Notes under the pieces: generated by a model
What the model was told of the DNA's origin: nothing
Databases searched by the model: none
What the model saw: the letters and a program-made list of their open reading frames with translations, nothing else
Made by a program: the position numbers and the translations under genes
Shown here: piece after piece, positions 30,778-38,283 of the stretch
How positions within the stretch are numbered: the stretch's first letter is position 1
How the letters are laid out: every line of letters begins with the position of its first letter
NCBI GenBank assembly: GCA_022825705.1
Contig: JAJDWH010000010.1
Coordinates: 62,001-126,000, forward strand
Source of the DNA: Alphaproteobacteria bacterium
GTDB lineage: Bacteria; Pseudomonadota; Alphaproteobacteria; TMED109
DNA length: 64,000 nucleotides
Direction: 5' to 3'

Positions 30778-32091
30778 ATGGACGGACATTGCTGGCATGC
30801 GGCGCAATCGCGACTCCGTGACGAAATCAGTCCGGCGGCCTTCGAGAACTGGCTGTTGCCGCTGCAACCGGTAGGTCCGGGAATCGACCCGCTGGTCCTC
30901 GCTGCACCGTCGGAATTCCATCGGCAGTGGGTGCGGAGCCAGTACCTCGGGCAGATTCTCTCCAGCTGTTCGGCGGCGGACCCGTCGGTGCGGCGCGTCG
31001 AGATCGTCGTCAAGGAGGACGGGACGGCCGCGCCGGGGGAGGCGCCGCCGTCGGCAGCGCCCTCGCATGTCGGCAGCGTGCTCGATCCGCAGCGGACGTT
31101 CGACTCCTTCGTGGTCGGCGCGAGCAACCAGGTCGCCTACGCCGCCGCCCGGCGGGTGGCCGAGGGGCGGACCAGCGGCAACCGGAACCTCCTGTTCTTC
31201 TCCGGGGGTGTCGGCCTCGGCAAGACGCACCTGATGCACGCGATCGCCTGGGAGATCATTGGCCGCGGGAAACGCAACGTCGCCTATCTGTCCTCCGAGA
31301 AGTTCACGTCGGAGTTCGTGGCGGCGCTGCGCGCGAAGGACACCGACGCGTTCAAGCGGCGGTTCCGGACCGTCGACGTCTTCATGGTTGACGACGTGCA
31401 GTTCCTGGCCAGCCGGGTCCAGACCCAGGAGGAGTTCTTCCACACCTTCGACGCACTCTCGAACGAGGGGAAGCAGATCGTCGTCTCGGGCGACCGGGCG
31501 CCGGTGGACATGGAGGACGTCGACCGGCGGCTGCGTTCACGGCTCGGCGGCGGTCTCCTGGCCGAGCTGCGCTCGACCACCTACGAACTGCGCCTCAGCA
31601 TCCTGCAGCGGCACCGGAGCCGCTACGACGAGGTCAGCGTTCCCGACGCGGCGCTCGAGTTCCTGGCCACGAAGATCACGAACGACATCCGGGAGCTGAC
31701 CGGGGCGCTGGCGCGCGTCGTTGCGCACGCGGAGTACGAGAAGCGCCCGGTGACGCTCGATCTCGTGCGTGACGCGCTCCCCGACCTGCTGCGCGCCAAC
31801 CAGCGCCGGGTGACGGTGGAGGCCATCCAGAAGGCGGTCACGGAGTACTACGGCCTGCGCCGGGGCGACCTGGTCTCGGCCCGTCGCGAGCGCCGCATCG
31901 TGGGTCCGCGCCAGGTGGCGATGTGGCTCTGCAAGCAGCTCACGCCGATGAGCCTTCCGGACATCGGTGGCCGGTTCAACCGCGACCATTCCACCGTGGT
32001 GCATTCCACGCGGCGTGTCGACGAACGGCTCGCGAACGAGCCTGTCCTGATGGAGGACGTCGAGAAGCTGAAGCACTGGATTCTAGACTGA
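30778..32091 (+). CDS. dnaA: Chromosomal replication initiator DnaA
   Basis: This 437-residue AAA+ initiator has an N-terminal DnaA domain I (CWHAAQSRLRDEISPAAFENW), a short linker, an AAA+ core with Walker A GGVGLGKTHLMHA and Walker B VFMVDDVQFLA, arginine-finger box RLRSRLGGGLLAEL, and the DNA-binding domain IV with the signature FNRDHSTVVHSTRRV. The frame is open upstream; the ATG at 30778 is preceded by GGGGAGGAG and matches the usual protein start, so I prefer it over 30700 or 30739. It heads the dnaA-dnaN-recF-gyrB block. Confidence 0.97.
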   Translation: MDGHCWHAAQSRLRDEISPAAFENWLLPLQPVGPGIDPLVLAAPSEFHRQWVRSQYLGQILSSCSAADPSVRRVEIVVKEDGTAAPGEAPPSAAPSHVGSVLDPQRTFDSFVVGASNQVAYAAARRVAEGRTSGNRNLLFFSGGVGLGKTHLMHAIAWEIIGRGKRNVAYLSSEKFTSEFVAALRAKDTDAFKRRFRTVDVFMVDDVQFLASRVQTQEEFFHTFDALSNEGKQIVVSGDRAPVDMEDVDRRLRSRLGGGLLAELRSTTYELRLSILQRHRSRYDEVSVPDAALEFLATKITNDIRELTGALARVVAHAEYEKRPVTLDLVRDALPDLLRANQRRVTVEAIQKAVTEYYGLRRGDLVSARRERRIVGPRQVAMWLCKQLTPMSLPDIGGRFNRDHSTVVHSTRRVDERLANEPVLMEDVEKLKHWILD

Positions 32092-32201
32092 TTCCAGGTG
32101 CAAGAGGGGGCGCATCCTGCTAGACTGACGCCCCTGAAGTTCCATCGCGAAAAGACGTGTGGCTGCACCGGTCGCAGGGCCGGTTCCGATCACGTGGATC
32201 A

Positions 32202-34616
32202 ATGAAATTTACGCTTGATCAAAAGGATCTGCTGGCACCTCTGAAGCACGTGTACGGGGTGGCGGAACGCCGCGACCGCACGCGCGCGCCGATCCTGGCC
32301 CACACGCTGATTCGGGCGCAGCGCGGCGCAGACGGGGAGAACGGCACGATCGCGTTCGATGCCTGCGATGACGAGGTCCTCTACGAATCCGAACGGCTGA
32401 CGGGCACGGTCGAGGAGGAGGGCGAGGCCACCGTCGAGGCGCATCTCCTGCATGACCTGGTGAACCGGATTCCGCGCAACACGGCGATCCAGGTGCGGAT
32501 GACGCCGGTCGCCGAAGCGGCCGGCTCGGAACCCGACGGGGCCGTTACCGAACTGCCGGATGCCCTGGGCGGAGAACCCGAGAAGCGGGTGATCATCGAA
32601 GCCGGCGGGAGCACGTTTGCCCTGCCCTCGCTGGCCCCGGGCGACTTCCAGAAGTTCGCCGAGCCGCCCGAGGATGCGCCGCTGCAGTTGCCCGCCGCGG
32701 AGCTCCGGCGGCTGATCGATTCCTGCCGGGTCTCGATGTCGGATGACGATGCGCGGCTCCACCTCAACGGGATCTTCATGCACACGGCCGACGAGGACGG
32801 GAAGACGCTGCTGCGAGCGGCCGCCACCGACGGCCATCGGCTGGCGTGCTCGGCGCACGTGCTGGAGGCGGGCGGCGGCGCGATCAAGGACGGGATCACG
32901 CTCCCCAAGAAGGCGGTCGAGCAGGTGGACGGGCTCCTTCGCAATGCGGACGGCGACGTGGCGCTGTGGTCGGGCGACAACCTGCTGCGGCTGGACGTCG
33001 GCTCGGTGTCCATGACCGCGCGCCTGAGCCAGGGCGGCTTCCCGGACTACCGGCGCGTGATTCCCCAGTCGCTCGAGAACCGCCTGCAGGTCAACCGGCA
33101 GTCCCTGTTGCAGGCCATCGACCGGCTGAGCGCCGTGACCGATCCCAAGAGCCGCGGGATCACGTTTCAGCTGGGCGGCGACACGCTCACCCTGAGTGCC
33201 GGCAATCCGGCCAGCGGCCTCGGCCGCGAGCTGATCAACGTCAAGTACGAAGGCAAGGCGCTGACCATCGGCTTCAACGGCGACTACGTGACGGCCTGCT
33301 GCCGCGTGATCCCCGACTCGGATCTCCTCCTGGAGTTCGACAGCCCCAAGCATGCGGCGGTCATCCGCGGCGCCACCAGCGACGAGACCGTGCACGTGGT
33401 CATGCCGCTCAACGTGTCCGCCCAGGGACACGCGGCGCTCCTGCGCGAGGTCGGCGCCGGGTCCGATGCCGGTCTGCAGTTCACCCAGGGGCGAAGCGCG
33501 CTGCTGGCGCCCCTGGCGCACATGCACGGCGTGGTCGAGCGGGTGGGGACCCGCCCCATCCTCTCGCACGTGCTGATCCGGGCGGAGGCGGGCAGCGTCG
33601 TGTTCGATGCCGGCGACAATCAGGTGCTGTACGAATCCGAACGCTTGGCCGCCCAGGTCGAGACCGCCGGCGCGGCCACCGTCGAGGCACCGCTTTTCTA
33701 CAGTGTCGTCGGCAAGCTGCCGGAGGGCGTGGACGTGCGCGTCTCCCTGGCCCCGGGCAGCGAATCGGACGGCGACGGTGCATGGCTGGTCGTCGATGCC
33801 GGGCAAAGCAAGTTCGTTCTGCCGTCGCTGCCGACCGACGATTTTCCGACGCTGCACGATCTGGAGTGGGAGCAGGTCTTCGAGCTGCCCGTTTCGGACC
33901 TGCGGCGGCTCCTGAGCTGGTGCCGGATCTCGATGTCGGGAGATCCGGCCCGCATGCACCTGAACGGCATTTTCCTGCACACCGTGGAAGACGGCGGGCA
34001 GCATCTCCTCCGGGCCGGTGCTACCGACGGTCATCGCCTGTCGCAGGCCGAATGCCAGTGCCCGCCGGGGGCCGAGGCGCTGGCGGAGGGCGTGACGCTT
34101 CCGCGCAAGGCGGTCGAGCAGATCGAGCGGCTGCTGGCGGATGCGGACGGCGCCGTGGGCGTGGGCATGGGGAACGGCTGGATGCGGCTCGCGGTCGCGG
34201 ATGTCGTGGTCGTCACCCGCCTGCACGAGAGTAAGTTCCCCGACTACCAGCGCGTCATTCCGACGACGTGCAACAGCACGCTGCAGATCAACTGCGGGGC
34301 CCTGCAACGGGGCCTCGAACGCCTGGCCCTCGTGGCCGACAAGAAGAGCCGGGCAATCCGGTTCGAACTGAGCGAGGAGAGTCTCACCGCGAGCGCCGGC
34401 GACCACCAGCACGGTGCGGGGCGGGAGGTCTTCGATGGCTCGTTCCGGGGTGACCCGGTCGTGATCGGGTTCCGGTCCGAATACCTCATGGAGTTTTGCC
34501 AGACCGCGCAGGGCGACGAGATGATCATCGAGTTCCAGGCCTCCGGCCAGCCGGCGGTGATCCGCGACACCGGAGAGGTCGGCAGGCTGCACGTCATCAT
34601 GCCGATAAGGGTCTGA
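32202..34616 (+). CDS. dnaN: Tandem-fused double sliding clamp (two DNA polymerase III beta protomers in one chain)
   Basis: One frame of 804 residues holds two complete beta-clamp protomers; the family norm is about 370, acting as a homodimeric ring. Copy 1 is residues 1-405 and copy 2 is about 425-804, joined by a linker of about 19 residues (from SAQGHAALLREV to GAGSDAG). Both copies have the three-domain pattern: domain I with LLAPL...ILAHTLIRA / ILSHVLIRA and VLYESERL; domain II with LRRL...SMS...LHLNGIF / MHLNGIF and ATDGHRL (208-214, 607-613); domain III with FPDYRRVIP / FPDYQRVIP (280-288, 679-687), SRGITF / SRAIRF and a C-terminal MPLNV (401-405) or MPIRV (800-804). These are the client-pocket elements. 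The halves are clearly diverged, so it is not an exact duplication. The ATG at 32202 lies 110 bases after dnaA and recF follows, the normal dnaN position. Confidence 0.93.
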   Translation: MKFTLDQKDLLAPLKHVYGVAERRDRTRAPILAHTLIRAQRGADGENGTIAFDACDDEVLYESERLTGTVEEEGEATVEAHLLHDLVNRIPRNTAIQVRMTPVAEAAGSEPDGAVTELPDALGGEPEKRVIIEAGGSTFALPSLAPGDFQKFAEPPEDAPLQLPAAELRRLIDSCRVSMSDDDARLHLNGIFMHTADEDGKTLLRAAATDGHRLACSAHVLEAGGGAIKDGITLPKKAVEQVDGLLRNADGDVALWSGDNLLRLDVGSVSMTARLSQGGFPDYRRVIPQSLENRLQVNRQSLLQAIDRLSAVTDPKSRGITFQLGGDTLTLSAGNPASGLGRELINVKYEGKALTIGFNGDYVTACCRVIPDSDLLLEFDSPKHAAVIRGATSDETVHVVMPLNVSAQGHAALLREVGAGSDAGLQFTQGRSALLAPLAHMHGVVERVGTRPILSHVLIRAEAGSVVFDAGDNQVLYESERLAAQVETAGAATVEAPLFYSVVGKLPEGVDVRVSLAPGSESDGDGAWLVVDAGQSKFVLPSLPTDDFPTLHDLEWEQVFELPVSDLRRLLSWCRISMSGDPARMHLNGIFLHTVEDGGQHLLRAGATDGHRLSQAECQCPPGAEALAEGVTLPRKAVEQIERLLADADGAVGVGMGNGWMRLAVADVVVVTRLHESKFPDYQRVIPTTCNSTLQINCGALQRGLERLALVADKKSRAIRFELSEESLTASAGDHQHGAGREVFDGSFRGDPVVIGFRSEYLMEFCQTAQGDEMIIEFQASGQPAVIRDTGEVGRLHVIMPIRV

Positions 34617-34627
34617 CCAGGACCCGA

Positions 34628-38283
<3,656 letters not shown>

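What the first reader, a model, noticed from the sequence alone, without database searches (positions are those of the whole stretch)
32202..34616. Two complete DNA sliding clamps fused in one dnaN gene
The dnaN position holds one 804-codon frame without stop or frameshift, in which two beta-clamp protomers (about 1-405 and 425-804) follow head to tail. Every bacterial beta clamp I know of is about 370 residues and forms a ring from two identical chains. Here the linker would cover one of the two protomer interfaces, so a single chain could make the whole ring with just one openable joint. The halves are homologous along their whole length but clearly diverged, so this is not an exact duplication or an assembly repeat. 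I know of no described natural single-chain bacterial clamp.
Basis: partly seen in the sequence, partly recalled or inferred. Interest (0 to 1): 0.95.

Follow-up and report, generated by a model that had tools for sequence, protein, structure and literature searches.

The report
Sliding clamp built from one chain
In one genus-level group of uncultured bacteria (probably alphaproteobacteria), the only DNA sliding-clamp gene found encodes two different clamp halves joined in one protein, so a single molecule would likely close the ring around DNA that other bacteria build from two identical copies.

Summary
Confirmed. Window 32202-34616(+), between dnaA and recF-gyrB, is one open frame of 804 codons holding two complete DnaN beta clamps (residues 1-405, 426-804) joined by 20 residues. 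It is the only clamp found in this genome. Not an artefact: seven full-length tandem proteins of 803-811 aa, 63-100% identical, are in the protein database, and 6 of 7 genomes of the genus carry it; the seventh shows no dnaN. The family's seven other genera have single clamps (20 of 21 genomes; one without match). N and C halves form two sister clades: one duplication-fusion, then divergence to 38-49% identity. Both are under purifying selection. Pocket subsite I is intact in both halves, subsite II differs; position 272 is Ala at the joint the linker would span and Leu at the other, Thr in most single clamps. AlphaFold2: pLDDT 87, pTM 0.79. A single-chain, asymmetric ring with one openable joint is the best reading; ring closure, oligomeric state and loading are untested. 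An engineered E. coli tandem clamp had its linker proteolysed (PMC3022782).

The parts
32202..34616 (+). fused dnaN: 804-aa tandem beta sliding clamp (stop codon included)
32202..33416 (+). N half, residues 1-405: complete three-domain clamp protomer
   Evidence: split set on the alignment
33417..33476 (+). linker, residues 406-425; predicted helix 407-419
33477..34613 (+). C half, residues 426-804: complete three-domain clamp protomer
33132..33137 (+). residues 311-312 (E. coli I272/L273 positions) of the N half, at the joint the linker would span: Ala-Val
   Evidence: interface residues from PMC11139829
34329..34334 (+). residues 710-711 (same positions) of the C half, at the joint left open: Leu-Val
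30778..32091 (+). dnaA, upstream neighbour (start codon approximate)
   Evidence: TIGR00362, 459.6 bits over cut-off 343.9
34658..35779 (+). recF, downstream neighbour (start approximate)
   Evidence: TIGR00611, 224.7 bits over cut-off 172
35776..38283 (+). gyrB (start approximate)
   Evidence: TIGR01059, 940.9 bits over cut-off 882.4

Best explanation
The gene encodes two diverged beta-clamp protomers in one 804-residue chain, and this single chain would likely fold on itself into the complete six-domain ring that likely serves as the cell's replication clamp. Shown: the tandem frame, its conservation, that it is the only dnaN found in the genome, and purifying selection on both halves. Inferred: the linker holds the N half's domain III against the C half's domain I, so the clamp loader opens only the other joint (C-half domain III against N-half domain I). 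Inferred too: with the two protomers now encoded separately, the two joints and the two partner pockets could diverge. The tethered joint has Ala where E. coli has Ile272 and most related single clamps have Thr; the open joint has Leu. The first pocket subsite stays intact in both halves while the second differs, which would let loader and polymerase prefer different halves. The usual clamp users (delta, a DnaX-like protein, the polymerase DnaE1 with a QSSLF motif, a second DnaE) are in the genome.
For: Tandem frame and domains; sole clamp: one dnaN match and only two PF02768 matches, both inside this gene, in a genome 93.6% complete, and likewise only the two matches of the tandem frame in the five other genus genomes that hold it. 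Six of 7 genus genomes tandem; seven database proteins. One duplication: N clade 100/100, C clade 100/98, joined 100/100; of 119 columns conserved in 37 single clamps, 9 carry the same new residue in both halves, e.g. E149D and Y154H at E. coli positions. dN/dS 0.04-0.17 and 0.10-0.14. Over 13 distinct tandem proteins: pocket subsite I 155 of 156 residues as in E. coli in each half; position 272 Ala 12 and Pro 1 (N), Leu 13 (C), against Thr in 35 of 37 singles; position 320 Asn 13 (N), Arg 13 (C), Asn 37 of 37 singles; position 365 never Arg in N, Arg 12 in C. AlphaFold2 pLDDT 87.2, pTM 0.79 on a 33-row alignment. holA, a DnaX-like match, two dnaE; Q[SA]SLF in DnaE1 of 7 of 7 genus genomes. 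A single-chain PCNA with 11-residue linkers crystallised as a closed ring, its linkers not resolved (PMC2824762, passages).
Against: No ring was observed: I saw no coordinates, ran no dimer model, and pTM 0.79 leaves room for error in domain placement. Residue 272 in related single clamps is Thr (35 of 37), so Ala in the N half is a modest loss and Leu in the C half a gain. Charged interface positions changed at both joints, not only the tethered one (positions 298 and 103). In 4 of 7 nucleotide sequences an in-frame ATG stands at the C-half start, in 3 of these with GGAGGAGG about 23 nt upstream, so a separately started C half cannot be excluded there. The laboratory E. coli tandem was proteolysed at its linker (PMC3022782).
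Confidence: 0.8

Rival explanations
1. Two tandem chains assemble together (N half of one against C half of the other, or N-N and C-C rings), so the ring is not made by one chain.
For: The two halves are both complete clamps and E. coli protomers pair at picomolar affinity (PMC11139829); linker geometry was not measured.
Against: A 20-residue linker with a predicted helix joins the C end of one protomer to the N end of the next, the natural head-to-tail order of the ring; local concentration would favour intramolecular closure (inference). Single-chain PCNA crystallised as a closed ring, linkers not resolved (PMC2824762).
Confidence: 0.1
2. The chain is split in the cell, by cleavage in the linker or by an internal start, and acts as an ordinary heterodimer of two separate protomers.
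For: The engineered E. coli tandem was proteolysed at its linker (PMC3022782). Met is kept at the old start of the C half in 4 of the 7 proteins of A1, and in 3 of 7 DNA sequences a Shine-Dalgarno-like GGAGGAGG lies about 23 nt upstream of that ATG.
Against: At that place the window has Leu (CTG), and P0007 and P0008 have Ala; 23 nt is too far for usual initiation (general knowledge). No stop or frameshift in the tandem members found.
Confidence: 0.08
3. Only the C half works as a clamp; the N half is a degenerating passenger.
For: The N half has the longer stem branch (1.63 against 0.72), a low-confidence loop at residues 105-125, and no Arg at position 365.
Against: dN/dS of the N half is 0.04-0.17, pocket subsite I is intact in 155 of 156 residues, and it keeps R24 and N320, which the C half lost; it is full length in the seven database proteins.
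Confidence: 0.03
4. Assembly or annotation artefact.
For: The named records are metagenome-assembled genomes.
Against: Separate assemblies with 63-98% identical tandem proteins, halves only 38-49% identical, no stops.
Confidence: 0.005

Closest known systems
Bacterial beta sliding clamp, DnaN (TIGR00663; E. coli, Caulobacter)
   Same: Both halves match along their whole length; pocket subsite I residues; locus between dnaA and recF; predicted fold of the N half
   Different: Known ones are single protomers of about 370 residues that pair as identical chains; here both protomers are in one chain and differ from each other
Engineered tandem E. coli dnaN (PMC3022782, passages seen)
   Different: Synthetic; linker cleaved in vivo (cited there as unpublished results); here natural, diverged and conserved over a genus
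Engineered single-chain yeast PCNA (PMC2824762, passages seen; PDB 3K4X)
   Same: One chain carries all subunits of a ring, with one unconstrained interface
   Different: Synthetic, three PCNA copies with 11-residue linkers; different clamp family
E. coli beta clamp mutant with interface cysteines, PDB 3pwe (R103C, I305C; title seen)
   Same: Cysteines at the protomer interface (that they were meant to cross-link it is recalled)
   Different: Engineered, two identical chains; no fusion
PCNA heterotrimers of some archaea and the 9-1-1 clamp (recalled)
   Same: Non-identical protomers allow division of labour among partner sites
   Different: Separate chains, three subunits

Membership tests
Bacterial DnaN beta sliding clamp (sequence family) | Match to the DnaN family model over its cut-off | tested here: met
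   TIGR00663 396 bits, cut-off 137.65, two stretches
Bacterial DnaN beta sliding clamp (sequence family) | Three clamp domains per protomer | tested here: met
Bacterial DnaN beta sliding clamp (sequence family) | Partner-binding pocket subsite I | tested here: met
   155 of 156 residues identical to E. coli in each half over 13 tandem proteins
Bacterial DnaN beta sliding clamp (sequence family) | Partner-binding pocket subsite II | tested here: inconclusive
   67 of 104 (N) and 63 of 104 (C) residues as in E. coli, against 260 of 296 in 37 single clamps
Bacterial DnaN beta sliding clamp (sequence family) | dnaA-dnaN-recF-gyrB neighbourhood | tested here: met
Canonical homodimeric clamp (ring of two identical chains of about 370 aa) | One protomer per chain, identical protomers | tested here: not met
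   804 aa, two protomers 44.9% identical; no second dnaN found in the genome
Canonical homodimeric clamp (ring of two identical chains of about 370 aa) | Closed ring around DNA, loaded by the clamp loader | not testable with these tools
   only a single-chain prediction, pTM 0.79, no coordinates

The most novel reading that the evidence does not exclude
A natural, obligately asymmetric single-chain sliding clamp: one permanently tethered joint, one loader-operated gate, and two partner pockets specialised for different clients (for example loader on the C half, polymerase on the N half), so that the replisome's clamp is no longer two interchangeable halves.
Probability: 0.4. Interest if true: 0.92.

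Novelty: new variant of a known kind. Interest (0 to 1): 0.83.

Why it matters
The bacterial clamps described in the reviews seen here (PMC11139829, PMC9690074, passages) are symmetric dimers, so it has been hard to ask which of two identical joints opens or whether one pocket or two are used; PMC3022782 says that a tandem dnaN was built for this purpose and that another strategy was taken because its linker was cut. This lineage made such a clamp naturally and kept it, with conserved differences between the halves. Each joint and each pocket can be mutated separately in one chain, which makes the one-cleft or two-cleft (tool-belt) question directly testable. It would also show that a homodimeric ring of the replisome can become a single chain.

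Tried and rejected
Co-evolution of the loader: the delta subunit of the genus reads ISLD where the E. coli clamp-binding plug has Leu73-Phe74 (7 of 7 genus genomes), and the 15 sister-genus sequences aligned had F, L or I at the second place. This looked like a matching change, but across a wider draw (51 of 52 loci aligned, 44 of them outside the genus; L086 gave no frame) that place holds F 15, T 8, L 8, M 6, G 3, I 3, D 1, so it is a variable site and I make no claim.

Other natural tandem clamps: the class draw (289 genomes, 280 with a match) and the phylum draw (397 genomes, 394 with a match) list full-length matches only in this genus (3 genomes and 1 genome); both outputs cut their match lists, which are ordered by score, so a distant tandem could hide below. 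The profile search with 33 sequences showed, among the 120 of 186 hits listed, only the seven tandem proteins above 514 aa. Long hits P0012 and P0014-P0017 (817-941 aa) look like one clamp plus an unrelated tail (read by eye).

Long-branch worry: both halves sit on a long common stem (2.41) and treekit warned that long branches meet; the nine shared new residues support common origin, but the place of the tandem clade among alphaproteobacterial singles is unsettled. Holding the C halves together with the family singles was rejected, p-AU 0.0003.

Rows left out: the tree used 8 of 13 distinct tandem proteins, 9 of 20 family singles, 13 of 17 class singles, 6 of the homologues and E. coli. The alignment A2 used 26 of the 32 single-clamp hits and seven tandem proteins, without the fragment P0009. 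First AlphaFold2 run with 7 rows: pLDDT 79.0, pTM 0.63. Fold searches listed no chain that I could read as covering both halves; the rows span residues 1-405 and one search gives no model ranges.

G024 (genus) and G015 (family) show no clamp domain at all, probably missing sequence; not resolved. The organisms behind P0005-P0008 could not be named.

Full report
What is there. The frame at window 32202-34616(+) encodes 804 residues without interruption. Pfam places all three beta-clamp domains twice, and the dnaN equivalog TIGR00663 matches twice at 396 bits, cut-off 137.65. By sequence each half finds the solved bacterial clamps: the N half best 5wce at 6.3e-51, the C half 6izo at 2.7e-62 (both are Caulobacter by the titles). 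Neighbours are dnaA, recF and gyrB, all over an NCBIfam cut-off. The genome (3.49 Mb, 55 contigs, 93.6% complete) shows no other dnaN: one match with the whole protein and two with the C-terminal domain model, both inside this gene. The five other genus genomes that hold the tandem also show only its two matches.

It is real and conserved. The protein search gave seven full-length tandem proteins, one of them a near-identical copy of the window's own, of 803-811 aa and 63-100% identity, on contigs up to 4.6 Mb, plus a fragment, P0009. In the window's genus 6 of 7 genomes hold it; the seventh, G024, shows no dnaN or clamp domain at all. In the seven other genera of the family, which are also all that the order holds here (repeats the same 28 genomes), 20 of 21 genomes have a single clamp in an open frame of 371-410 aa and one has no match. 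A draw of 289 genomes of the class listed full-length matches in the genus alone, and a draw of 397 genomes of the phylum in the window's genome alone; both lists are cut by score. Six loci in named records carry it: one is titled Rhodospirillales bacterium and three Alphaproteobacteria bacterium, two bear titles from other phyla. These overlap with the unnamed genus genomes: three encode identical proteins and L028 has the same coordinates as G022.

How it arose. In a tree of 45 rows the N halves form one clade (100/100), the C halves another (100/98), and the two are joined (100/100) on a long stem. So a single duplication and fusion preceded the split of the members found, including the most distant, P0007 and P0008. 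Of 119 columns at least 90% conserved in 37 single clamps, 9 carry the same new residue in both halves, 13 carry different new residues, 7 changed in N only and 7 in C only, one of the last being the start Met lost by my cut; others vary within a half or are unchanged. The gene had thus already drifted from its relatives before it doubled, for example Tyr154 to His and Glu149 to Asp (E. coli itself has Gln at 149). Long-branch effects make the outer placement uncertain.

Both halves are kept. Between genomes dN/dS is 0.041-0.172 in the N half, 0.099-0.142 in the C half and 0.037-0.528 in the linker, taken there as 21 codons, over four pairs. The linker keeps Leu413, Leu414 and Gly418 in 7 of 7 proteins and is predicted to form a helix at 407-419.

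What differs between the halves. I took interface and pocket residues of the E. coli clamp from PMC11139829 (passages) and read them off an alignment of 13 distinct tandem proteins and 37 single clamps. Pocket subsite I is as in E. coli in 155 of 156 cells in each half. Subsite II is not (67 and 63 of 104; singles 260 of 296): position 320 is Asn in all 13 N halves and 37 singles but Arg in all 13 C halves; position 365 is Asn, Asp, Ser or Gly in N halves, Arg in 12 of 13 C halves, and Arg (26) or His (11) in singles. R24 is kept in all N halves and is Val in all C halves; that it touches DNA is recalled, and the N half has an insert next to it. At the domain III side of the interface, position 272 is Ala (12) or Pro (1) in N halves, Leu in all C halves, Thr in 35 of 37 singles; position 273 is Val in both. 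The domain I side keeps Phe106 in 12 of 13 and 13 of 13. Changes in charged residues affect both joints (positions 103 and 298). PMC3022782 and PMC11139829 state that I272A with L273A breaks or weakens the E. coli dimer; loss of side chain at the joint that a linker would hold is what one would expect if the linker replaces part of that contact. This is inference.

Separate products. Met stands at the old start of the C half in 4 of 7 proteins of A1, Leu in the window, Ala in P0007 and P0008. Of seven nucleotide sequences four have an ATG there, three of them with GGAGGAGG about 23 nt upstream. A conserved internal start is therefore unlikely but not excluded.

The rest of the machine. The genome holds holA, a second weaker holA match that reads as DnaX (recognised by eye from the translation), and two dnaE. 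The translated DnaE1 has LSQSSLFGD, and all seven genus genomes have Q[SA]SLF there, near the motif consensus given in PMC11139829. A change in delta's plug looked promising and was dropped after a wider comparison.

How it most likely works. One chain closes head to tail: N-half domain III meets C-half domain I under the linker, and C-half domain III meets N-half domain I as the only joint that can part. E. coli needs only one joint to open for loading (PMC11139829), so tethering the other should cost little in loading, keeps the two protomers in fixed ratio, and lets them diverge. Shown here: frame, conservation, sole copy, selection, unequal residues. Predicted: fold. Inferred: intramolecular ring, gate, division of pockets.

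Known or new. Lab-built equivalents exist. PMC3022782 (passages) reports a synthetic tandem E. coli dnaN whose linker was proteolysed in vivo (cited there as unpublished), and PMC2824762 (passages) a single-chain yeast PCNA with two 11-residue linkers that crystallised as a closed ring with the linkers unresolved. No natural single-chain bacterial clamp appeared in the listings of eight searches of open-access papers; two of these returned nothing. The review passages I saw describe bacterial clamps as dimers (PMC9690074; PMC11139829). I call it a new variant of a known kind: a DnaN by family, a new architecture by chain.

Noticed in passing
P0012, P0014-P0017: Metagenomic proteins of 817-941 aa with one beta clamp at the N end followed by a long tail in which I see no second clamp: another kind of oversized clamp; only P0017 carries a name (DNA polymerase-3 subunit beta).
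   Followed up: no
L061, L072-L077 (holA of the genus): Delta subunit reads ISLD at the clamp-binding plug in 7 of 7 genus genomes, Asp at the E. coli Phe74 place; the site is variable across the class.
   Followed up: yes
L027 and L030: Records titled Thermoanaerobaculia bacterium and Vicinamibacteria bacterium carry this genus's clamp (100% and 87% identical), so their titles look wrong.
   Followed up: no
G024: Genus genome reported 96% complete with delta and two dnaE but no clamp domain found; probably missing from the assembly.
   Followed up: partly
residues 100-128 of the fused clamp (window 32499-32585): An insert in domain I of the N half, variable in length between members, low in predicted confidence (105-125 under pLDDT 50), and absent from the four single clamps and E. 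coli shown; the C half has a shorter one.
   Followed up: no
window 32199-34649, minus strand: An 816-aa open frame lies opposite the fused dnaN; likely a by-product of high G+C coding sequence.
   Followed up: no
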